From a virus, in the IMG/VR virus record IMGVR_UViG_3300005915_000106, positions 1 to 24,793 of that record: a stretch of 24,793 nt of DNA; one strand, given 5' to 3'. This document shows, piece after piece, positions 4,911 to 24,793 of the stretch. Every line of letters starts with the position of its first letter. Positions within the stretch are counted from its first letter, which is position 1. The position numbers were made by a program, and so were the translations under genes. The notes beneath the pieces are model-generated. The model made no database searches. It was not told where the DNA came from and saw only the letters and a program-made list of their open reading frames with translations.

Positions 4911-7039
4911 TAGCGATTGCCCGCAGCTGCGGCGTTTGCATTGATTGACATAGACTGAAATTCGTCTTCGGTGAAGATACTGCCGTCGGCGTGTATGTAT
5001 GTGGTGTTACCCTCATAGGTTCGGCCTATTCGTAATGCGTCAGGAGATGGCGTTGAGGAACCGTATCCGCTTGATGCCGAGTTGCTATTATTCCCGGCAT
5101 TTCTCCCGGCGAAATATGACGCGGCAAAGGATGCCAATACCGCCCCAAGCCCTATTGCTATCATGGCCGGATCGCCGGTCTGTATTAGCGCCGTTCCGAC
5201 CGCGAGAAGTATTTGAGGTAGTGCGTTTATGATTGCTGTTTTGAAATCGCCCCACGCATCGGCGGCAGTCTTCACGCCGTCGCCCATTGCTGTTGAGGCT
5301 TCGCCCATGTCGCGCACTAATTGCAGCGCGCTATCTGCAAGTAGGTCAATAAGGTTTTTCTTTAGAGACTCGCCTATGTCTTTTATCTTCTGGTCGAGTT
5401 CCTCTTGCTTCGCTATATATGCATCGGTTGCCGCAACCATAGCGGCCCAATTATTCGCATTGTTCATCATCTCGGTATTCTGAATACTCACCGCGTCGGT
5501 TACTATCCGCGAGCCATTTGCTACATGAGCATAGGCAACGCCGAGATGCCCGAGGCCGAGCGTTAATTTATTTACCAACCCTGCCTGCATTACAAAGGGT
5601 GCGCCGAATGTCATCATTGCCGGGAGCGTTTCATTCTCTGCGACTGCCACTCTGTGAGAGAGGCTATCAAAAGCCAGCGCGAGGGTCCTTTCCCATTCCT
5701 GTATCGGGCCGTCGCCCCTGAGTATCTTAGGTATGCCTACCTCATTCATGATCTTCATGGTTTCGACAAAACCCTCGGCGTGTTTTTGTGCAAGCTTCAT
5801 GCCTATCGAAACGTCCGCGGTTAGATCGGGAATTGGTCTGAGTATATTCGCAAGGGTTCCGTATTTGTCGCCACCCTTGCCGCCGTCACCGCCCGCGCCG
5901 GTGTCCGTCGTATCTGTAGTTCCGAAATGCCCCACCGTCTGCCCGATAGAAGTCATAATCCTTTCTAATGTTGACCTAAATGTCCGGAGGTCCTGTAGTT
6001 TTTGTTCTAGCTGTTGCTTGCTTAATCCACCGGTAAACTTTGTTTCAGTCGCCCGGATACCCCTGTTAGGCTTATCAAGTATTCGCTGTATCTCTTCTTC
6101 GGCAAGCGTCAAGTCAATTAGCCTATCCGTAAGCTCGCCCATATTTGCCGCTGCATCTTTGGTTAAGTCGGGCACTGTTAGAAAGGTTTTGAAAATATCT
6201 TCAAGGTTGCGCTTCTGAGTTCCAAGGTTTATCAACGCGGTTAATTTCTGCACGGCGATAGTAAGGAACGGTATCAGGTCTTCGACAAGCGACTTTCCTA
6301 ATTCCTGTACAGACCCCTTGAGAGTGGACATCGCGCCGTTCAGTGTTTCCGATTGCTTCTCGAGCATCCCCGCGAATTGCCCTTCCCCGGTTGTGAGTGC
6401 GCGCAATGCGTCGTCAACCTCTTTGAATCCAACCTTACCGGCAGAGATAAACTTAAATAGTTCCTCGTTGGTCATGCCGAGATTATCGCCAAGCGCCCTC
6501 ATCAATGGAACACCGGCCTCGGTGAACATATTGATTTCTTCTAAGGATGCGCGGCCTTTCGCCTGTACCTTTCCGTAAGCCCCGACCAGCCTGCCGAGTG
6601 TTTCGCTGTTACCCTGCGCAGCGTTCCCGAGGTTTTTCATGGTATCAACAACGTCCTCGGCAGCAGTGCCGAAAGCTATGAGCCGTTGCGCCGCGGGTGC
6701 GAGTTCTTCAAAAGTGAATGGTGTCTTTACGGAAAAATCCCGGAGGGCCGAAAGTGTTTCTTGTGCCTTATCTGCCGACTTAAGAAGCGCCGTAAATGAT
6801 ACGGTTATCTGTTCAACGGACGCGGCATATCTTATTGAGGACGTGACAGATCCCTTGACAAGTTTAGTCATCAGGAGAATACCCGCCGTAACACTCAGCG
6901 GGCCTATCAGTTTTTTAGCCATATCCTTGAGACTCATGCTTGTATCTTTGCTTGATTTCTTAAACCGGTTGAGTTCGCTGACGGCTTTTTTTGTTTCGGC
7001 CTTGACGAGTATCCTTAGTTCTTCGGCAGTTATCGCCAT
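4910..7039 (-). CDS. Tail tape measure protein
   Basis: A 709-residue protein that would set tail length and occupy the tail tube lumen. The N-terminal 250 residues show the phage tape-measure domain pattern (FTALLKSADKAQETLSALRDF, the PFTFEEL segment, then GRASLEEINMFTEAGVPLM). A long helical and coiled middle follows. Near residues 610-650 there is a hydrophobic, glycine/alanine-rich stretch (LPQILLAVGTALIQTG, then AIGLGAVLASFAASYFAG) that could be membrane-active during DNA ejection. The start has a GAGG-type site 6 nt upstream. It follows the frameshifted chaperone pair and precedes the tail fibre gene, the standard siphovirus order. By the usual rule of about 0.15 nm per residue, the tail would be near 100 nm if the protein is unprocessed. 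Confidence 0.93.
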   Translation of the reverse strand: MAITAEELRILVKAETKKAVSELNRFKKSSKDTSMSLKDMAKKLIGPLSVTAGILLMTKLVKGSVTSSIRYAASVEQITVSFTALLKSADKAQETLSALRDFSVKTPFTFEELAPAAQRLIAFGTAAEDVVDTMKNLGNAAQGNSETLGRLVGAYGKVQAKGRASLEEINMFTEAGVPLMRALGDNLGMTNEELFKFISAGKVGFKEVDDALRALTTGEGQFAGMLEKQSETLNGAMSTLKGSVQELGKSLVEDLIPFLTIAVQKLTALINLGTQKRNLEDIFKTFLTVPDLTKDAAANMGELTDRLIDLTLAEEEIQRILDKPNRGIRATETKFTGGLSKQQLEQKLQDLRTFRSTLERIMTSIGQTVGHFGTTDTTDTGAGGDGGKGGDKYGTLANILRPIPDLTADVSIGMKLAQKHAEGFVETMKIMNEVGIPKILRGDGPIQEWERTLALAFDSLSHRVAVAENETLPAMMTFGAPFVMQAGLVNKLTLGLGHLGVAYAHVANGSRIVTDAVSIQNTEMMNNANNWAAMVAATDAYIAKQEELDQKIKDIGESLKKNLIDLLADSALQLVRDMGEASTAMGDGVKTAADAWGDFKTAIINALPQILLAVGTALIQTGDPAMIAIGLGAVLASFAASYFAGRNAGNNSNSASSGYGSSTPSPDALRIGRTYEGNTTYIHADGSIFTEDEFQSMSINANAAAAGNR

Positions 7040-8426: not shown

Positions 8427-8864
8427 CTATCCCCCAATTTTTGAAAGTGTAAAAACTGTCTCTTGCCCGTCGATATCCCGGCGCTCTACTTTCCATTTCT
8501 TATCGGTGTACCAGTTGTATTTTTTCCCCGTGCCGGTCGAAGGGTCGCAGTAATCGAATGAGCCCAGCGTAAAAAAATGAAAGTGCGTCGGGTCTTGGTA
8601 TGATTGCTCGGCCCTAAAATATGTAGTTCTAATAAACATCTTGCCGCCCGGCTTTACAATCCGCCAGCACTCATCAAGAAACGGAAACACAAGAATCATG
8701 TGCTCTATAATATCGGTCGCTATCACGTTATCAAATTCATTCTTCTTGAACGGCCACGGCATCACCGTCAAGTCATGCACAACGTCGGCGGCGTCGGTCT
8801 TCCGGAAATCAACATTTACGGCGTCCTTTATTCCCTTGTCTCCGCATCCGAGATTAACATTCAC
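8427..8864 (-). CDS. Class I SAM-dependent methyltransferase
   Basis: A 145-residue, compact Rossmann methyltransferase of the type found near sugar-biosynthesis genes. Motif I is VNLGCGDKG at residues 3-11 and binds SAM; VNVDF follows as the second strand, then FDNVIATDIIEH (motif IV region) and WRIVKPGGKMFI (motif VI). The start is GTG, with AAGGAG 6 nt upstream, and overlaps the glycosyltransferase stop (GTGA). At 145 residues it is shorter than usual (200-250), but the fold core is intact. Substrate unknown. Tight coupling to the glycosyltransferase suggests that they act on the same glycan. Confidence 0.85.
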   Translation of the reverse strand: MNVNLGCGDKGIKDAVNVDFRKTDAADVVHDLTVMPWPFKKNEFDNVIATDIIEHMILVFPFLDECWRIVKPGGKMFIRTTYFRAEQSYQDPTHFHFFTLGSFDYCDPSTGTGKKYNWYTDKKWKVERRDIDGQETVFTLSKIGG

Positions 8865-9865
8865 GCGATGCTCCTTTCTAAAATCTCAATCAGCCTGTCG
8901 GCTGATTTCTCCCAGGTAAAGTGTTCTCTCATTACCCATGCGGCTGTTATCCCTTTTTCAAGAGCCTCATCGTAATGAGTGTATACTTCATACATTCTGT
9001 CAACAACAGATTCTATCTTCGCCGACGGTGCAAAGCACGGCTCAAGGTCGCCGTCGTCAGGATTCATGATGTGTGTCTCAATCATTTCATACTCTACCGG
9101 ATAAGCATAGTCATTAGACGCCGTGTCGTTGGTTCCGCCGTAGGGCGTATAGATGCACGGCAATCCGGTAGCCATTGCCTCGCACAACGGCAGGCCCCAG
9201 CCTTCGCCCATGGTCGGCCATAGGAAGCAATTGGCATAATGGTACAGCGCCGCCATGGTCGGCAGGTCGCAACCCTCGGTCTCTTCGTTTGGCAATATCC
9301 GGTAATCGAGAAAGGCGTTCTTTGTTACTTGTGTGAGCTTAGGCTCTTTCTCATATGAAGTCATCTTCATTACAAGGTGCGCCTTGTCTGACAGTTCCGG
9401 GTATCGTTTGTTCCACAATTCCCACGCCTGCGCAATATGGGTAGTGCCTTTACGCGGGTTGTCGTCGCCGACAAACATGAAAGTAAACGGTTCTTTTTTC
9501 TCTCTCTCGAAATATGGGTATTGAACGGAGTCAACGCCAAGGGGGCATATATCAATCGGCGTATCTGTTGACGCTGAAAAAACCTTCTTGTTATCTGTGC
9601 ACGGCACTATAATCCGGTCCGCTTTGTCAAGAAATTGTTTCCACTGTGCAGGCACCCGGTCAAACTCGAACATCGTAAACAGCACGTTGGTTTTGAATCG
9701 CCATAGGTAGAAGCGAAAAGGAGGCATTGCCTGTAAGCATATCTCTGCACTCGCGTCCAGTTCGACACCGGCATGTATCGCGGCTTTCATCATCTTTCGC
9801 ATGAAAGTTGTATAGCCAAAGCATGAGCCGATCCCGTTGTAACTGAGTGGTACGGATACTTTCAT
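8861..9865 (-). CDS. GT4-family glycosyltransferase
   Basis: A 334-residue GT-B-fold glycosyltransferase. The C-terminal nucleotide-sugar domain shows FMFVGDDNPRKG at residues 129-140 and the retaining GT4 signature EGWGLPLCE (E221 to E229, the EX7E motif), followed by AMATGLPCIYTPYGG. The N-terminal acceptor domain begins with GIGSCFGYTTFMRKM. It would transfer a sugar from a nucleotide donor to an unknown acceptor. It sits between the tail terminator and the tail tube gene, translationally coupled to the methyltransferase, so glycosylation of virion tail proteins is one reasonable idea; modification of host surface glycan or phage DNA is an alternative. RBS GAGGAG lies 6 nt upstream of the ATG. 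Confidence 0.92.
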   Translation of the reverse strand: MKVSVPLSYNGIGSCFGYTTFMRKMMKAAIHAGVELDASAEICLQAMPPFRFYLWRFKTNVLFTMFEFDRVPAQWKQFLDKADRIIVPCTDNKKVFSASTDTPIDICPLGVDSVQYPYFEREKKEPFTFMFVGDDNPRKGTTHIAQAWELWNKRYPELSDKAHLVMKMTSYEKEPKLTQVTKNAFLDYRILPNEETEGCDLPTMAALYHYANCFLWPTMGEGWGLPLCEAMATGLPCIYTPYGGTNDTASNDYAYPVEYEMIETHIMNPDDGDLEPCFAPSAKIESVVDRMYEVYTHYDEALEKGITAAWVMREHFTWEKSADRLIEILERSIA

Positions 9866-13779: not shown

Positions 13780-14535
13780 TTACTGTCTGTTCTGCCAGAT
13801 TTTGACGTAATCAATATCAATGAATGCGGCAGTTGATCCGGCGGTAATCAGTCCGGCAAGAGTAAAACAAAGATCGTCGGTCGTGGTAACTGCGAGCAAG
13901 TGTTCTGCTACCAATGCGCCGTCAATGAAATACCGAGCGTTGCCGAGCGAGTCAAGTTGTATCCGGTAGATATGCGAAGTCGCCAAGACAAGATCGGTAC
14001 CGGTGTCTGTTGACTGCGGTACGCCATCGGCGATGGTACTCAGCGCGTATATGTCGTCGGAGGTTTCGGCGCGTACTCCAAACATAACCGCGTCGCTTGC
14101 CCATGCATCAACTGTTCCGGTTGCGAGTGAAGCATCTTTAAATGATATCTTCGCGGCGCCTTCGGTTGCAACGTCGGTAAACCCGAAGTTCATGAAAAGA
14201 CTCGCGTCGGAAGTCTTTGTCTCTACCTTGACTTCACATCCGCAAGATTGGGCGGCCTCCCATGCAAGCGCCGTTGAAATCTCGGTTCTTTTATCCGCCG
14301 CGGTACCAGTATCTATTTCGTAGAAACCGTTCACCCTGGCCGTGATATCCTGCGCGTTCGAGGTTCCCTCGGTTGCTTCCGTCCAATCGTTCGTCGCGTC
14401 GGTCGCGGGTTTCAAAAAGTCATCAAAAAAGACAACTGGAAAACCCATCGGCATAAGTGTCTCGAAAGTATGTCCATCATAAAACACCTGGCGCCCGGTA
14501 TTCTGCCAGTTATAATCTGCTTTTGTTCGTCCCAT
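13780..14535 (-). CDS. ConA/LamG-like beta-sandwich virion protein (copy 1 of duplicated pair)
   Basis: A 251-residue paralogue of the downstream gene. It starts MGRTKADYNWQNTGRQVFYD where the copy reads MGKTKSTYNWQGTGNMAFYD. Divergence is spread over the length, with changes in the first third and around residues 125-145 (FKDASLATGTVDAWASDAVM versus WADDSLATGTVDSVSDDSAM), and a conserved end. This pattern implies an old tandem duplication with selection to keep the fold. Probable lectin-like decoration protein. RBS AAAGGAAGG lies upstream of the ATG. Confidence 0.8.
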   Translation of the reverse strand: MGRTKADYNWQNTGRQVFYDGHTFETLMPMGFPVVFFDDFLKPATDATNDWTEATEGTSNAQDITARVNGFYEIDTGTAADKRTEISTALAWEAAQSCGCEVKVETKTSDASLFMNFGFTDVATEGAAKISFKDASLATGTVDAWASDAVMFGVRAETSDDIYALSTIADGVPQSTDTGTDLVLATSHIYRIQLDSLGNARYFIDGALVAEHLLAVTTTDDLCFTLAGLITAGSTAAFIDIDYVKIWQNRQ

Positions 14536-14598
14536 TCTGCACCTTCCTTTAAGGTACCGCAGCCCGAAGGCCGCGGCACAGATTCTTAATTCTTTATC

Positions 14599-15057
14599 TT
14601 ACGCTAATGCCTGAGGAGGAGCTGCCTGTGCATAACGTGCGCCCGATAGTATCGGGATTATCGTTATCACGTTCGCGCCTGCGGTATCCGTAACCATGGT
14701 CATAAACGGGTAGTCCGCTGTCAGCTCCGAGGCGTCAACCTCGATAACATACATGCTTCCGTTATCGGTCCCGGTTACAAGCCCGGTTGACGCATTTAGC
14801 GTCCGATCACCGGTTACGCCCGCGGTAATCTTGTAGTAGTAAAACGCTATCGCAGTCTTGTTAGAACCGCTCGCGTCGTCACTTTCATACAGGATGATAG
14901 TTGACGAGTTGGTAATTGCACCACTATAAACGATTATCGAAACATGACTATAATTCTCCATGCTCCAATAGTCTGAAGTCTTGGCCCCTCCGCCGATATC
15001 GACGGGTGCCACGCCGGCAACTGCCTTGCCCTGTTCTGCAATATTAAATCCTTTCAT
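14599..15057 (-). CDS. Small beta-rich virion protein (candidate capsid decoration)
   Basis: A 152-residue protein immediately after the major capsid gene. It begins MKGFNIAEQGKAVAGVAPVD and is rich in alternating strands: HVSIIVYSGAITNSSTIILY, AIAFYYYKITAG, SMYVIEVDASEL and ANVITIIPILSG. Tyr, Ser and Thr are abundant and cysteine is absent. Position and composition fit a head decoration or stabilisation protein. The STIILYESDD segment recalls the strand pattern of the domain inserted in the head-tail connector (VNAKIQESDDDVTYTDV). RBS AAGGAATT precedes the ATG. Confidence 0.7.
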   Translation of the reverse strand: MKGFNIAEQGKAVAGVAPVDIGGGAKTSDYWSMENYSHVSIIVYSGAITNSSTIILYESDDASGSNKTAIAFYYYKITAGVTGDRTLNASTGLVTGTDNGSMYVIEVDASELTADYPFMTMVTDTAGANVITIIPILSGARYAQAAPPQALA

Positions 15058-18640: not shown

Positions 18641-18658
18641 AGCCCCCTTTCGGGGGCT
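18641..18658 (-). terminator. Hairpin terminator at end of second guide array
   Basis: The minus strand reads AGCCCCC-GAAA-GGGGGCT, a perfect 7-bp stem with a GNRA-type tetraloop, followed by TTCCC, so the U-tract is weak. The 5' arm is shared with the last, altered repeat box AAGCGAGCCC (18663-18654). It closes the transcript of the guide-array/tas cassette before the portal gene. Confidence 0.7.
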
Positions 18659-18807
18659 CGCTTTATCTGACTGGGTTCCTTCCGGAATCTGGCTCGCTTC
18701 AGATTTGTGGTTTACTCATATGGGTTGGCTCGCTCCAGCAATCTGGTTTTCTCCCGGGTTTTGGCTCGCTTTTGTCTAATGGTTTTCTTGAAAGCCCTGG
18801 CCCTCTT
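18654..18807 (-). repeat. TIGR-type guide array 2 (four 36-nt units)
   Basis: Read on the minus strand, box 1 (AAGCGAGCCA) begins at 18807, 18771, 18735 and 18699, with a closing copy AAGCGAGCCC at 18663; spacing is exactly 36 nt. Box 2 follows each box 1 after 8 nt: AAGAAAACCA, GAGAAAACCA, GAGTAAACCA, AAGGAACCCA. Box 1 variants are AAGAGGGCCA (first, decayed) and GAGCGAGCCA. The 8-nt variable pairs are GGGCTTTC/TTAGACAA, AAACCCGG/GATTGCTG, ACCCATAT/CAAATCTG and GATTCCGG/GTCAGATA. All pairs differ, as expected for guides and not for structural repeats. The first box begins one base after the stop codon of the tas gene, so array and gene share a transcript. Two conserved and two variable segments per 36 nt match dual-spacer TIGR arrays. 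Confidence 0.88.
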
Positions 18808-18808
18808 T

Positions 18809-19717
18809 CTAAAACACCCAACCTCTTTCAGTCGGGCTTATTATTCCCGTATGTCCTAAATACTCCTCTGCGTATAGCGAGCGTGTCGGGAGTCCTCGAA
18901 TAGTTCTGCCGACAAACCAATAATCTGCAAGTATATGTTTCATAACTGCCCGTAATGCCGCGCCATGTCTGTGGCATGGCTTCGTATCTTTCCAGGCTAC
19001 CTCGACAAGCATTCCTTGCGTGTTCCTGCTCTTTGTTATTTTCTCGCTTATCGCCAGCCGCTCCTTGGTCCTGTCGTACACTTCCCGGTATGCGCCGCGA
19101 GTTTTCATCATTGAATCGGCGGTCCTCCACAGGGCGGTTCTGAGTTTCTTATTCCCGCCACCCGCTTCGCCTTTAGTATATCTTTGATGGCTCGCGGTAT
19201 GCAGTCCGGTGTAACTCCAGGTAGCCGACGCGGTAGTTGCTTTTTCGAGATCGATATAAACCGAGAGATACGCGACGGTCATTTCCCCGAGCCCCTTAAC
19301 GCCCATGGCTGACTTGATAAGTGAATCCTCCTCTTGGTGCTCTTTGATCCACTTAACAATCTGCTTCTCTGCATCAACGAGAATGGGCAAAACCTCATCA
19401 ACCGCGTTTCCGAGATGCTCCTCGGTTTCTTCTCTTGAGTAATCAGTCCTCCGCTTGAAGGCGAGTAGTTGATTATTGATTTTGTTCTTCAGCTTCAACA
19501 TTTGCTCCCGGTCGTCAATCAACGCCTTAAGTTCGTTGTGGTCCTCTTCTCGCAACCGGAGAATGCCATGCTCCTCCATGTGTGCTACCGGGTCAACGAC
19601 TTCATAGTTGTCGGGGTCATACGTCCCGCCTTGCGCCTTCGGTTTCGCCCGGTGCGTGTCGTACTCTGCAAAATCTTTTGTAATTCCTTTCGCCTCTTTC
19701 AGTGCTACTTTTGCCAT
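18809..19717 (-). CDS. tas: TasA-like Nop/IS110-type RNA-guided DNA-binding protein
   Basis: A 302-residue protein flanked on both sides by 36-nt dual-spacer arrays. Residues about 1-55 are a charged N-terminus, 55-130 are helical/coiled (NELKALIDDREQMLKLKNKI and on), and 135-265 resemble the C-terminal domain of IS110-family transposases, which is related to the Nop domain: a helix-hairpin-helix-like GVKGLGEMTVAYLSVYIDLE (139-158), then WSYTGL (167-172) and AGGGNKKLRTALWRTADSMM (185-204), where the IS110 pattern is 'kG...lRraL..aA'. The RuvC-like DEDD half of IS110 proteins is absent, and no HNH motif is seen, so it fits the nuclease-less TasA class and not TasR or TasH. It would bind 36-nt guides and DNA without cutting. 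RBS AAGGAG, 6 nt before the ATG. The alternative reading is a decayed IS110-like transposase, but the arrays argue against it. Confidence 0.85.
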   Translation of the reverse strand: MAKVALKEAKGITKDFAEYDTHRAKPKAQGGTYDPDNYEVVDPVAHMEEHGILRLREEDHNELKALIDDREQMLKLKNKINNQLLAFKRRTDYSREETEEHLGNAVDEVLPILVDAEKQIVKWIKEHQEEDSLIKSAMGVKGLGEMTVAYLSVYIDLEKATTASATWSYTGLHTASHQRYTKGEAGGGNKKLRTALWRTADSMMKTRGAYREVYDRTKERLAISEKITKSRNTQGMLVEVAWKDTKPCHRHGAALRAVMKHILADYWFVGRTIRGLPTRSLYAEEYLGHTGIISPTERGWVF

Positions 19718-19745: not shown

Positions 19746-20043
19746 TGGCTCGCTTTAAAATCTTGGGTTCCTTACGTTGAATGGCTCGCTTAGGTCAATT
19801 GGGTTTCTCGCAGCTTGTAGCTCGCTTGAGCGATTTGGGTGTCTTAATCGATGTGGCTCGCTTGCAATAAATGGGCGTCTCATAGTCTTTGACTCGCTTA
19901 AGCAGCATGGGTGCTTTATCGTAAGTGGCTCGCTTAATGGAAATAGGGATCTCCGCTCGTTTGGCTCGCTTGCGCCCATTGGGGTTCTCTCGTGACGTGG
20001 CTCGCTTAAAAAAAATGGGTGTCTTACTCTGCCTGGCATAAAA
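19746..20043 (-). repeat. TIGR-type guide array 1 (eight 36-nt units)
   Basis: On the minus strand, box 1 (AAGCGAGCCA, with single changes such as AAGCGAGTCA and AAGCGAGCTA) begins at 20007, 19971, 19935, 19899, 19863, 19827, 19791 and a closing copy at 19755; spacing is exactly 36 nt. A decayed box 1 (only GCCA kept) precedes these at 20043. Box 2, consensus RAGNNNCCCA, lies 8 nt after each box 1. The 8-nt variable pairs are GGCAGAGT/TTTTTTTT, CGTCACGA/ATGGGCGC, AACGAGCG/TTTCCATT, CTTACGAT/TGCTGCTT, AAGACTAT/TTTATTGC, CATCGATT/AATCGCTC, CAAGCTGC/ATTGACCT and TTCAACGT/AGATTTTA. Both boxes share the form RAG....CCA, so the unit is an imperfect dimer of 18 nt. The array lies between the cassette promoter/leader and the tas gene. 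Known TIGR guides are about 36 nt with two short spacers, which is the same geometry. Confidence 0.9.
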
Positions 20044-20084
20044 AAAGCCCCTCCATCTTGTGTCCCGTGGTGAGCGGGGTGGCT
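20040..20084 (-). terminator. Terminator-like hairpin / possible attenuator before array 1
   Basis: The minus strand shows AGCC-A-CCCC (20084-20076) pairing with GG-A-GGGGCT (20054-20046), giving eight GC-rich pairs with one bulged A on each side, followed by a run of seven T (20046-20040). The T-run merges into the decayed first box of array 1. As an intrinsic terminator it would cut the leader transcript before the array. It may end a short RNA or limit array expression. Confidence 0.55.
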
Positions 20085-20159
20085 CCGTGAGAAACCAATA
20101 ACACAAGCCTGGAAAGGCCATTTTTCTCACGGAATCTGTATCGCCGGGCACCACCCAGC
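20085..20159 (-). ncRNA. Structured leader RNA of the guide-array cassette
   Basis: Between the promoter and the terminator-like hairpin lies a noncoding stretch of about 75 nt. It contains a perfect 11-bp inverted repeat (20123-20133 with 20084-20094; core CCGTGAGAAA) enclosing a smaller perfect hairpin GCCT-N4-AGGC (20107-20118). Near its 5' end is GGGTGGTGCCC, another short stem. Together with the following hairpin the leader would be strongly folded. The 11-bp and terminator hairpins compete at base 20084. Its function is unknown: an attenuator leader, a separate small RNA or a processing signal for the array are all possible. Confidence 0.5.
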
Positions 20160-20165
20160 ATCATC

Positions 20166-20194
20166 ATTATTGCATATGGCGTGCCCGCTGTCAA
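20166..20194 (-). promoter_or_regulatory. Strong sigma70-type promoter for the guide-array/tas cassette
   Basis: The minus strand reads TTGACA (20194-20189), a 17-nt spacer, and AATAAT (20171-20166). The -35 is the full consensus and the -10 matches TATAAT at five of six positions. It begins 3 nt after the large terminase stop codon. Transcription would start near 20159 and run into the leader and array 1. It is the best promoter I see in the window. Confidence 0.85.
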
Positions 20195-20197
20195 GGG

Positions 20198-21892
20198 TTA
20201 AAACGAAAGCACCTCGACGCCGTGGTCCTCATATACGCTGCGCTTCTTGACATTCCTCACCGCCATTTCCAAAGCCATGAGCTGAGAAAACACCGCGTCT
20301 ATGTGTTTGCTCGATTGTCGTGTCTCGGGTTTGACCGGCCTGATGTTTCCATTCGTGTCGCGCTTTATTTCGGCGTTACTTACTTCCCACGATACCACCG
20401 GGTTAGGCAATACCGATAGGGTTTTGTTAATCACTTTTGTTTCGAGGTTCTTTGCCGCAGGTGATATCAGCTTCCATCCCTGCGAAAACTCGACAAGGTA
20501 TTTCTCCCATCCAAGTTTTTCAAGGTTGGCTACAAACTGCGATGAGTTAAAGGGATCAAAGGCTATCTCTTTGATATCATATAGATCCATATCCTTCTCA
20601 AGTTCCGCCTGGATGAAATCATAATCGATGGTACGCCCCGGCGTGAGTATGCAATGATTATCCTCTGCCATCTTCCGCCACTCGAAACGCTCCTTTTTCT
20701 CGCGCTCCGCTATGCCGTACCCGGGTAGGAATATCTTTGTAAACATTCTAAACCCGCCCTCCCATGCAAACGCGAGCGAATAGGCCGCGGTATCGATCAC
20801 GGTAGCCAGGTCAATCCCGGCACACGCGGGCGCGCCTTTCATTTCCTCTATGTCAAACTGCTTTTCGATCGCCGACCAGTCAGTATCTTTAATCCAGCCG
20901 AAGCGGTTCTTTGTCCAGATATTGAGATTCTTGTTTTTGAATTTGCTTTGCTCGCTCGCCATGTCGAGAGCTTTTTGAAAGTCGCTCTCTATTGCCTTTA
21001 CTTTCTTGCTCACGCCGAGACAGGGATTAGCTTTCAGCCATACGCTCTTGTCGGTCCATTCATCTTTTTCGTCGAGCGTGTAGATAATCCCGAAGTAAGT
21101 TTCATTCGTTGCCTTTTTGCTGAGTACCCGCTGTGCATATTCTTCCTCATCAACACACGGTACGTCCGGGTCAAAGCCTGCGGTAGTGATAATAATAGTC
21201 ATCGGTTGCGCTCGGGACGACATACCATCAGACATAATGCGGTACACACCGTCGGTCTTATGCGCGTGGTATTCGTCGATGATTGCACAATGCACGTTTC
21301 TACCGTCAAGGGAATCCACGTCTGCAGCAACGGCCTTGAATGAGGAGGTTTCTGTATCGGCGTCTGTAAGTGCATGCCTGGAAAGTTTTATAACTTTTTG
21401 TAATTCTTTATTCTTTGCAACCATGGCGCGGGCATAGTCGCTGAAAACGATCCGCGCCTGTTCTTTTGTCGTAGCCGCTGAGTAAACTTCTGCTCCGCCC
21501 TCACCGTCAGCAATCAGCATGTAAAGAGCGATTGCCGCTACCCATGTACTCTTCCCGTTCTTCTTCGCTACCTCGATAAACACCGTCCGGAACCTGCGGT
21601 AATCGTCCCGGTCAAGCCATCCGAAAATAACCCATGTAATGAAAATCTGCCACGGCTGCAGGATAAGCGGCTTCTTGTCGAGCTCCCCTTTCACGTGCAC
21701 GCAGTAATAATGCACAAACTCAATTACATGCTCGGCTCTCGCCTCATCGAAGTGATACGGAAACTGTTCGGTATCCTGTTTTTTCAGATTGTCTTTATGC
21801 CGCTTCGCCGCGAGCTTCACCCACTTGCAGGCTACTACCTCGCCGGATAGAACATCGGTTATATACTTTTCAGCGGTCTGTTTTATGTTCAT
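20198..21892 (-). CDS. terL: Terminase large subunit
   Basis: A 564-residue packaging motor and nuclease of the HK97/P27-partner type (Terminase_1). The ATPase domain has Walker A VAKKNGKST (about residues 108-116) and Walker B AIIDEYH with D206 and E207, plus a C-motif-like IIITTAG. The nuclease domain has the RNase H-like acids GIDLA (D361), AFDPFNS (D446) and HIDAVFSQ (about D530). The start overlaps the PAPS-reductase-like gene (ATGA). The stop is followed at once by the promoter of the guide-array cassette. It cuts and pumps the phage DNA through the portal. Confidence 0.96.
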   Translation of the reverse strand: MNIKQTAEKYITDVLSGEVVACKWVKLAAKRHKDNLKKQDTEQFPYHFDEARAEHVIEFVHYYCVHVKGELDKKPLILQPWQIFITWVIFGWLDRDDYRRFRTVFIEVAKKNGKSTWVAAIALYMLIADGEGGAEVYSAATTKEQARIVFSDYARAMVAKNKELQKVIKLSRHALTDADTETSSFKAVAADVDSLDGRNVHCAIIDEYHAHKTDGVYRIMSDGMSSRAQPMTIIITTAGFDPDVPCVDEEEYAQRVLSKKATNETYFGIIYTLDEKDEWTDKSVWLKANPCLGVSKKVKAIESDFQKALDMASEQSKFKNKNLNIWTKNRFGWIKDTDWSAIEKQFDIEEMKGAPACAGIDLATVIDTAAYSLAFAWEGGFRMFTKIFLPGYGIAEREKKERFEWRKMAEDNHCILTPGRTIDYDFIQAELEKDMDLYDIKEIAFDPFNSSQFVANLEKLGWEKYLVEFSQGWKLISPAAKNLETKVINKTLSVLPNPVVSWEVSNAEIKRDTNGNIRPVKPETRQSSKHIDAVFSQLMALEMAVRNVKKRSVYEDHGVEVLSF

Positions 21893-23353: not shown

Positions 23354-24727
23354 TTAAAACGTTCGTAATATTCCGTTACAGTCTTTCATATATTCAAACC
23401 CCGCCGTACCGGGTTCAATTTTCTCATAGTACCTGCTCGGTATTTTGCTCCGGACATATTCGGATAGCCGTGACTGAGATACGTTTGCCGTCTTGCTGTT
23501 GAACACAATACCCTTATAGTCTACGTCTCCAGCATATCTATTTACCAGCATACGCTTTATGACTGCATATCCTGCGGTTATTCCCGGACGTATTGTCAGG
23601 CGGATAGAGTCGCCATCATAAAGCGTACCGGGACTGATGTAATCAGTATAGCTGTATTCACAAGACGGTTTTTCATACTGCATCGGCGTGCACATTTCGG
23701 CGGAAAACGGGTTGAGTTTTAACGCGATGTATAGTTTAGCATCAGCCTTTCTGTCTAACTCAGAAACCATTTTTGTCAGCGCCGCGATATCGCGCATAAC
23801 CGTATCCGGTGTTTCCCACGGAAAACCTATAATACAATTGCAGATAAGCGCGACGCCGCCCGATACGGTATCAAGTATTTCCGCTATGGTGTTTTTTACA
23901 TCCGCATCCTTGAGCGGTCGGTTTACCCGATGCCGCGTTTCTTCCGTAAGGCCATCGAATGCGCTTATGTACATCCCCGGCTTTTTAATGTCTAAGTAAT
24001 TCCAAAAATCTTCTACGTGCTTCCCGCCCTGTGCTGTATAGTGCTGATTGGTTTTCCGTGTCCAGGTATACTGACAGTAAGCACACCGCATCTTGCAGCC
24101 GCAGGCCGATTCTCCCGGCATCAGATATTTATATTTTCCATATTCATATTCTCCCTCGATATCCGGGTCTTTGCTCTTCCTCCACACGTTCGGGAAGTCT
24201 GCCCCGGCGAGGATAAAGTTAATCTGCCCCTCGGCCCTGCCCCACACCGCAACGTCGATATAGTCCTTTACTACCTTGATGTTATGCACTCCCGCTCCGC
24301 CGATGATTATCTCTGCGTTTCTACTTTCCGGTGCCCTTGTTTCGAGAGAAAAAATGAGGTTTTCGATATCATACACCGACGTGATCGGTACAAGGATATT
24401 GTCATATTGATTTATTTGTTCAGGAAAGCAGAAGTCATAGGGCCGGTTTATCTCGCCAAGGATTCCGCGCAACCCGAGGTATGGCAAATCTCCGAATGTC
24501 TTGCCGCCTATCTTTCGGCGCTGCGTAAAGTCTGACAGCATGAGCACGGCGGTATCTGCGCGATTGCGCTTTACAAGGAGGTTGGGAATAAACTTAAATG
24601 ATAAATCTTTCCCGCGGCTCACGGCGGTCCTGCACTCCCGGCACGCCCCCTCGTATATGCCGCGATCCTTTCTGTAGTAAAATGCTGACAGAGGCTTTAG
24701 CTGTTTGCACTTCGTACACTTTTTCAT
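23354..24727 (-). CDS. Radical SAM protein with N-terminal zinc ribbon and B12-binding-like region
   Basis: About 457 residues from the ATG at 24727; an open frame extends to 24790, but GGGGG 13 nt upstream of the ATG and the zinc ribbon right after it favour the shorter form. Residues 4-32 hold CTKC...CREC, a ribbon common in phage DNA-associated enzymes. At 140-170 IIIGGAGVHNIKVVKDYIDV and VWGRAEGQ resemble the 'GG......d.vv.GegE' part of B12-binding radical SAM proteins. The cluster motif is CKMRCAYC (C211, C215, C218; CX3CX2C), followed by ISAFDGLTEETRHRVNRPL and CNCIIGFPWETP, typical for the radical SAM barrel. Substrate unknown; methylation or another C-H modification is plausible. It lies directly upstream of the packaging genes. 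Confidence 0.85.
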   Translation of the reverse strand: MKKCTKCKQLKPLSAFYYRKDRGIYEGACRECRTAVSRGKDLSFKFIPNLLVKRNRADTAVLMLSDFTQRRKIGGKTFGDLPYLGLRGILGEINRPYDFCFPEQINQYDNILVPITSVYDIENLIFSLETRAPESRNAEIIIGGAGVHNIKVVKDYIDVAVWGRAEGQINFILAGADFPNVWRKSKDPDIEGEYEYGKYKYLMPGESACGCKMRCAYCQYTWTRKTNQHYTAQGGKHVEDFWNYLDIKKPGMYISAFDGLTEETRHRVNRPLKDADVKNTIAEILDTVSGGVALICNCIIGFPWETPDTVMRDIAALTKMVSELDRKADAKLYIALKLNPFSAEMCTPMQYEKPSCEYSYTDYISPGTLYDGDSIRLTIRPGITAGYAVIKRMLVNRYAGDVDYKGIVFNSKTANVSQSRLSEYVRSKIPSRYYEKIEPGTAGFEYMKDCNGILRTF

Positions 24728-24793
24728 ACGATTATCATAACCCCCTACAAAATAACTTTCTAATCTGCAATTTTGACCGCGTGCACGCAAGCC

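What the first reader, a model, noticed from the sequence alone, without database searches (positions are those of the whole stretch)
19746..20043. The 36-nt unit is an imperfect dimer of an 18-nt unit with two 8-nt spacers
Both boxes follow RAG....CCA and alternate every 18 nt, with box 1 nearly invariant and box 2 variable in the middle. This two-fold symmetry recalls the C/D and C'/D' box arrangement bound by Nop proteins, and suggests a guide with two pseudo-equivalent binding faces, each holding one spacer. The boxes do not look self-complementary, so recognition is likely by protein contacts to kinked boxes and not simple stems.
Basis: partly seen in the sequence, partly recalled or inferred. 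Interest (0 to 1): 0.8.

Follow-up and report, generated by a model that had tools for sequence, protein, structure and literature searches.

The report
Phage TIGR-TasH two-spacer guide array
This phage carries a close relative of a published RNA-guided DNA-cutting system (TIGR-TasH), whose 36-base guides really are built from two near-symmetric 18-base halves, each holding one 8-base spacer; it is a good new example of a known kind, and what it targets is still unknown.

Summary
On the minus strand, array 1 (19746-20043) alternates an edge repeat (AAGCGAGCCA) and a loop repeat (RAGNNMCCCA) every 18 nt, with 8-nt unconserved spacers. Lag-36 identity is z = 10 and lag-18 z = 4.9 against shuffles; neighbouring lags are at background. 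A second array of four units (18664-18807) lies on the other side of the 302-aa gene at 18809-19717. That protein passes NCBIfam's TIGR-Tas endonuclease cutoff. It is 59% identical to TasH of Salicola phage CGphi29, the published SpTIGR system with solved TasH-tigRNA structures. The CGphi29 edge repeat is identical and its spacers are also 8+8. One correction: the boxes do pair. Across 17 related loci, G3 of one edge half pairs with Y8 of the preceding edge half (97% of 192 units), with covariation across the cut edge and not within one uncut edge; the loop repeat keeps the same single pair. No unit folds clearly better than shuffles. I found no natural target. Verdict: new member of a known kind, modest interest.

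The parts
18809..19717 (-). tasH gene, 302 aa: N-terminal HNH domain (about 1-52), long coiled-coil helices (58-127), C-terminal Nop/IS110-like RNA-binding domain (about 132-300)
   Evidence: NCBIfam NF052498 TIGR_Tas_endo 118.3 bits, cutoff 100; phmmer to PDB TasH E 6.5e-108; AF2 model pLDDT 86.6, TM 0.85 to 9w04; D20, R23, G30, G31, N37 invariant and H46, H50 nearly invariant in an alignment of 14
19746..20043 (-). TIGR array 1 (upstream of tasH): truncated first edge TGCCA at 20038-20034, then 8 spacer pairs separated by loop and edge repeats, last edge at 19755-19746 next to the tasH ribosome-binding site
18664..18807 (-). TIGR array 2 (downstream of tasH): 4 units, first edge AAGAGGGCCA
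18641..18663 (-). last edge repeat of array 2 (AAGCGAGCC) merged into a GC-rich hairpin GAGCCCCCGAAAGGGGGCTTTCCC, probable end of the transcript (U tract weak on this strand)
   Evidence: sequence; same fusion of last edge and hairpin in CGphi29, where a T run follows; hairpin stem found (T run scored on the + strand only)
20166..20194 (-). promoter-like site TTGACA-17-AATAAT with TG before the -10, just after the terminase stop codon; would drive array 1, tasH and array 2
   Evidence: 11 of 12 matches; an 11 of 12 site also lies about 160 nt before tasH of CGphi29
20031..20158 (-). strongly structured leader between the promoter and array 1, with a U7 run next to the first unit; possible attenuator
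   Evidence: fold -48.4 kcal/mol, z -2.44

Best explanation
The region is a TIGR-TasH system carried by a tailed phage, between its terminase and portal genes. Shown by sequence: a TasH gene with two arrays of 36-nt units on its coding strand. Inferred from close homology to the characterised SpTIGR-TasH: the arrays are transcribed with tasH as pre-tigRNA, a TasH dimer binds each unit, and a host RNase cuts in the middle of the edge repeats to give 36-nt tigRNAs. Each tigRNA is pseudo-symmetric. One TasH protomer holds the edge boxes (the 3' half of one edge repeat and the 5' half of the next, joined by a G3-Y8/C4-G7 clamp); the other holds the loop boxes. Spacer A then pairs with one DNA strand and spacer B with the other, so the expected target is 16 bp reading spacer A followed by the reverse complement of spacer B. 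The two HNH domains cut one strand each. By the published C-5 rule I expect 6-nt 3' overhangs with 8-nt spacers (inference). The biological role is probably removal or handicapping of rival mobile DNA, but that part is not shown.
For: Protein family membership above the curated cutoff, 59% identity to SpTasH, fold match to solved TasH complexes with tigRNA, pre-tigRNA and DNA. Edge repeat identical to that of CGphi29 and same 8+8 spacer lengths, as reported for SpTIGR (16 nt in all). 192 of 195 parsed units in 17 related loci have 8+8 spacers. The edge clamp pairs in 97% of 192 units and covaries across the two half-edges of one guide (5 clashes, 8.6 expected, p 0.007) but not within one uncut edge repeat (7 against 5.4). 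C-G to U-A switches at 4-7 follow locus lineages and probably occurred more than once on the Tas tree.
Against: No expression, processing or cleavage data for this phage. The covariation p-value rests on a few variable loci, and rises to 0.056 if only internal units are kept. No natural target was found, so the role is open. The published TasR work saw no protection against phage or conjugation in E. coli.
Confidence: 0.94

Rival explanations
1. The array is a protein-coding tandem repeat: 36 nt is 12 codons, and two overlapping minus-strand ORFs (94 and 119 aa) run through it, so it could encode a 12-residue repeat protein.
For: ORFs 19755-20039 and 19795-20154 are open across the array.
Against: Two frames are open at once, as expected of a stop-poor 36-nt repeat; the 16 spacer positions are near random between units; relatives keep the boxes but contain frame-shifting length changes (L021, L025); CGphi29 has the same boxes as a proven guide array.
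Confidence: 0.02
2. It is an IS110-type element with bridge-like RNA rather than a nuclease guide system.
For: Pfam Transposase_20 weak hit and PHROG 'transposase' names; structural relation to IS621 and ISCro4.
Against: N-terminal HNH in place of the DEDD transposase domain; fold much closer to TasH (TM 0.85) than IS621 (0.47); multi-unit array instead of one bridge RNA; IS110 NCBIfam score 23 against a cutoff of 140.
Confidence: 0.02
3. The guide works as described, but its natural use is homing or self-spread of the phage locus instead of attack on rivals.
For: Free-standing HNH endonucleases near phage terminase genes are often homing or packaging enzymes (general knowledge); the locus sits between terminase and portal.
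Against: Eight plus four different spacer pairs would be excessive for one homing site; no spacer pair matches exactly in the window or in the TIGR-bearing relatives held.
Confidence: 0.12

Closest known systems
SpTIGR-TasH of Salicola phage CGphi29 (Faure et al. 2025, PMC12045711; PDB 9w04, 9w03, 9w02, 9vzx, 21kl)
   Same: Same effector domain order, 59% identity; identical edge repeat AAGCGAGCCA; 8+8-nt spacers in a 36-nt unit; array in the late gene region of a tailed phage; last edge merged with a hairpin
   Different: Loop repeat RAGNNMCCCA against AAGACAACCA; arrays on both sides of the gene against one downstream; all spacers differ; gene between terminase and portal against after the major head gene
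TaTIGR-TasR
   Same: Nop dimer, edge and loop repeats ending in CCA, one spacer per strand
   Different: RuvC instead of HNH, 9-nt spacers, repeats begin with UG instead of RAG; model TM only 0.54-0.55
Box C/D snoRNP (Nop5/58)
   Same: Two-fold arrangement of box pairs on a Nop dimer
   Different: K-turns with L7Ae, methylation of RNA, mostly not in regular arrays
IS110/IS621 bridge RNA recombinase
   Same: Nop-like RNA-binding domain, two-part guide
   Different: Transposase domain, single two-loop RNA; TM 0.45-0.48

Membership tests
TIGR-Tas (TasH) | Tas protein with a Nop domain | tested here: met
   NCBIfam TIGR_Tas_endo above cutoff; Foldseek to TasH and TasR
TIGR-Tas (TasH) | N-terminal HNH domain with conserved residues | tested here: met
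   Alignment to SpTasH; D20, R23, GG30-31, N37 invariant, H46, H50 nearly so; activity not tested
TIGR-Tas (TasH) | Array of two alternating 8-12-nt repeats with short spacers beside the gene | tested here: met
   10-nt repeats, 8-nt spacers, two arrays
TIGR-Tas (TasH) | Shared box C (CCA) and box D motifs in edge and loop repeats | tested here: met
   Positions 2, 3, 8, 9, 10 shared; A2, G3, Y8, C9, A10 in 192 units
TIGR-Tas (TasH) | Box pairing between half-edges of a processed tigRNA, with covariation | tested here: met
   modest statistics
TIGR-Tas (TasH) | Array starts and ends with truncated edge repeats, terminator after the end | tested here: met
   TGCCA at the start; last edge merged into a hairpin at 18641-18663; the U tract is weak
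TIGR-Tas (TasH) | Processing to 36-nt RNA and tigRNA-guided DNA cleavage | not testable with these tools
   needs RNA sequencing and biochemistry
Box C/D snoRNP | K-turn and L7Ae, fibrillarin partner | tested here: not met
   No stable stem in the 11 units folded; no Rfam snoRNA match, only one unrelated sub-threshold hit; no fibrillarin gene among the window ORFs examined
IS110 element | DEDD transposase domain with single bridge RNA | tested here: not met
   IS110 NCBIfam 23 bits against 140

The most novel reading that the evidence does not exclude
In this TasH clade, arrays grow by copying whole units, after which the spacers change by point substitution, so guides drift or track target variants without an acquisition machinery. 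Four loci related to this one contain unit pairs differing at 1-2 of 16 spacer bases, where essentially none is expected. The window's own arrays do not show such pairs.
Probability: 0.35. Interest if true: 0.6.

Novelty: new member of a known kind. Interest (0 to 1): 0.3.

Why it matters
It adds a phage TasH locus with an edge repeat identical to that of the biochemically studied TasH system. It also gives a set of 17 related loci (192 guide units) in which the box pairing seen in solved structures can be checked by covariation. The larger open questions, what these guides target and how arrays gain spacers, stay open; the near-duplicate units are a handle on the second.

Tried and rejected
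Natural targets. Three spacer pairs of the window (A + rc(B), gaps 0-2) were scanned against all viral contigs. Independent hits were 33, 22 and 39 for gaps 0, 1 and 2, so there is no excess at the expected spacing. All 192 pairs against 640 kb of TIGR-bearing phage contigs gave no exact match, and one-mismatch counts (12) like those of four wrong-orientation controls (7-15). Self-targeting in the window: no exact match. Hairpin per unit: rejected, z-scores from -1.3 to +1.3 in 11 units. Pairing within one uncut edge repeat: rejected against pairing across half-edges. Known RNA family: none at gathering strength. PADLOC: no model matches. Terminase-based search for sister phages found only the same phage in another sample and one 35% relative, so a direct test on close TIGR-less relatives was not possible. 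Tandem Repeats Finder did not see the array, because spacers make up 44% of the unit.

Full report
What is there. The window is an IMG/VR virus record holding the late genes of a tailed phage on the minus strand: small terminase, PAPS-reductase-like gene, large terminase, then the region in question, then portal, head protease, major head protein and tail genes. Between terminase (stop at 20198) and portal (start 18556) lie array 1 (20043-19746), a 302-aa gene (19717-18809) and array 2 (18807 to about 18664).

Observation. In array 1 the unit is 10+8+10+8 = 36 nt throughout. Lag-36 identity is 0.546 (z 10.0) and lag-18 0.401 (z 4.9), with flanking lags at background; array 2 gives z 6.7 and 3.9. 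Edge boxes are 92% identical to each other, loop boxes 72%, spacers near chance. Edge and loop share A2, G3, C8, C9, A10 and differ at 4, 5 and 7.

Identity of the protein. Pfam gives only a weak Transposase_20 hit, but NCBIfam NF052498 (TIGR-Tas RNA-guided endonuclease) scores 118 against a cutoff of 100, and IS110 scores 23 against 140. The best phage relative is Salicola phage CGphi29, 59% over 93%, whose protein has eight solved PDB entries named TasH or putative HNH nuclease. An AlphaFold2 model (pLDDT 86.6) matches the TasH-tigRNA-dsDNA complex 9w04 at TM 0.85, TasR at 0.55 and IS621 at 0.47. HNH-domain residues D20, R23 and N37 are invariant and H46 and H50 nearly so.

Identity of the array. 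CGphi29 has edge AAGCGAGCCA, loop AAGACAACCA and 8-nt spacers; Faure et al. report 16 spacer nt for SpTIGR. The window's edge repeat is identical. Viral contigs gave further TasH loci, each with a 36-nt-period array. Of 195 units parsed in 17 loci, 192 have 8+8 spacers; the spacers carry almost no positional information (0.00-0.10 bit). My parser asked for the box pattern, so box frequencies are somewhat circular; spacer statistics and the within-locus covariation test are not.

Symmetry and pairing. Published TasR structures show edge boxes on one protomer and loop boxes on the other, in a pseudo-C2 figure of eight, with Watson-Crick pairing between box C and box D in both repeats and an additional pair in the edge, formed between two different edge repeats of the processed RNA. 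I tested this here. Folding 11 window units gave no structure beyond shuffles. But position 3 of the following edge pairs with position 8 of the preceding edge in 97% of 192 units (GC 111, GU 50, AU 26, AC 5), and 4-7 in 89% (CG 130, UA 41). Within-locus permutation gives 5 clashes against 8.6 expected (p 0.007) across half-edges, while within one uncut edge repeat there are 7 against 5.4. A single case shows it well: in L022 the edge at 9071 carries G7 (instead of A) and the next edge, 9107, carries C4 (instead of T), a compensating pair across two different edge repeats. C-G to U-A switches need two changes on the best Tas tree, though one origin is not excluded by well-supported branches.

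Expression. A TTGACA-17-AATAAT site with TG lies at 20194-20166 (11 of 12), followed by a strongly folded leader (z -2.44) that ends in U7 beside array 1. CGphi29 has an 11 of 12 site at a similar distance from tasH. So the module probably has its own promoter within the late region. This rests on sequence only.

Targets. Expected targets are A + rc(B), deduced from the published 8-nt 3' overhangs and C-5 rule. No natural target was found. One spacer pair (GATTCCGG/GTCAGATA) exactly matches a conserved stretch, encoding VIPVSDP, in a set of phage contigs and also a prophage family, but the number of independent hits is what chance gives.

Array growth. Within loci, four unit pairs differ at 2 or fewer of 16 spacer bases, with none expected from between-locus pairs; exact spacer-A repeats are 5 against 0.14 expected, and spacer B 0. 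This suggests unit duplication followed by substitution.

Verdict. Correct and well-read observation; the mechanism is published; this is a new member of the TIGR-TasH kind.

Noticed in passing
L014, L015, L016, L021 arrays: Pairs of units whose 16 spacer bases differ at only 1-2 positions, and exact repeats of spacer A with a different spacer B: array growth by unit duplication followed by substitution.
   Followed up: partly
L018:2980-3933: TasH with HNH histidines replaced (PRPRMKKQG where others have PVAHMEEHG) but an intact, regular TIGR array: a naturally inactivated TasH candidate.
   Followed up: no
L017:6756-9380 and 14484-14663: Four separate TIGR arrays, two of them flanking a 219-aa ORF (starting at 6894) of unknown function next to tasH, and one about 5 kb away.
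   Followed up: no
L026:7491-9860: TasA-like gene followed by a ParB-like gene with three arrays before, between and after: the published tasParB arrangement.
   Followed up: no
L008:2950-4019 (Microcystis phage Mvi-JY20): Distant Tas relative (29%) next to an unannotated array with edge ATGCGAGCCA and loop ACGAAACCCA and slightly variable spacer lengths.
   Followed up: no
window 20031-20158, minus strand: Very stable leader hairpin with a U7 run between the promoter-like site and array 1, possibly an attenuator.
   Followed up: partly
window 18658-18693, minus strand; L034, L035, L038, L051, L052, L057, L058: Spacer pair GATTCCGG/GTCAGATA matches a conserved stretch encoding VIPVSDP in several phage contigs, portal-like by my recollection; not above chance.
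   Followed up: partly
window 23354-24790, minus strand: 478-aa protein with an N-terminal zinc-ribbon or HNH-like stretch and a CxxxCxxC motif typical of radical SAM enzymes; unusual beside a terminase.
   Followed up: no
window 8427-9865, minus strand: A glycosyltransferase-like and a methyltransferase-like ORF inside the tail gene block, by eye from the translations.
   Followed up: no
L002/L009 and L004/L013: The same TasH gene in two other contigs from different samples; array 2 is identical in both and array 1 in the one that holds it, so no array change between these samples.
   Followed up: yes
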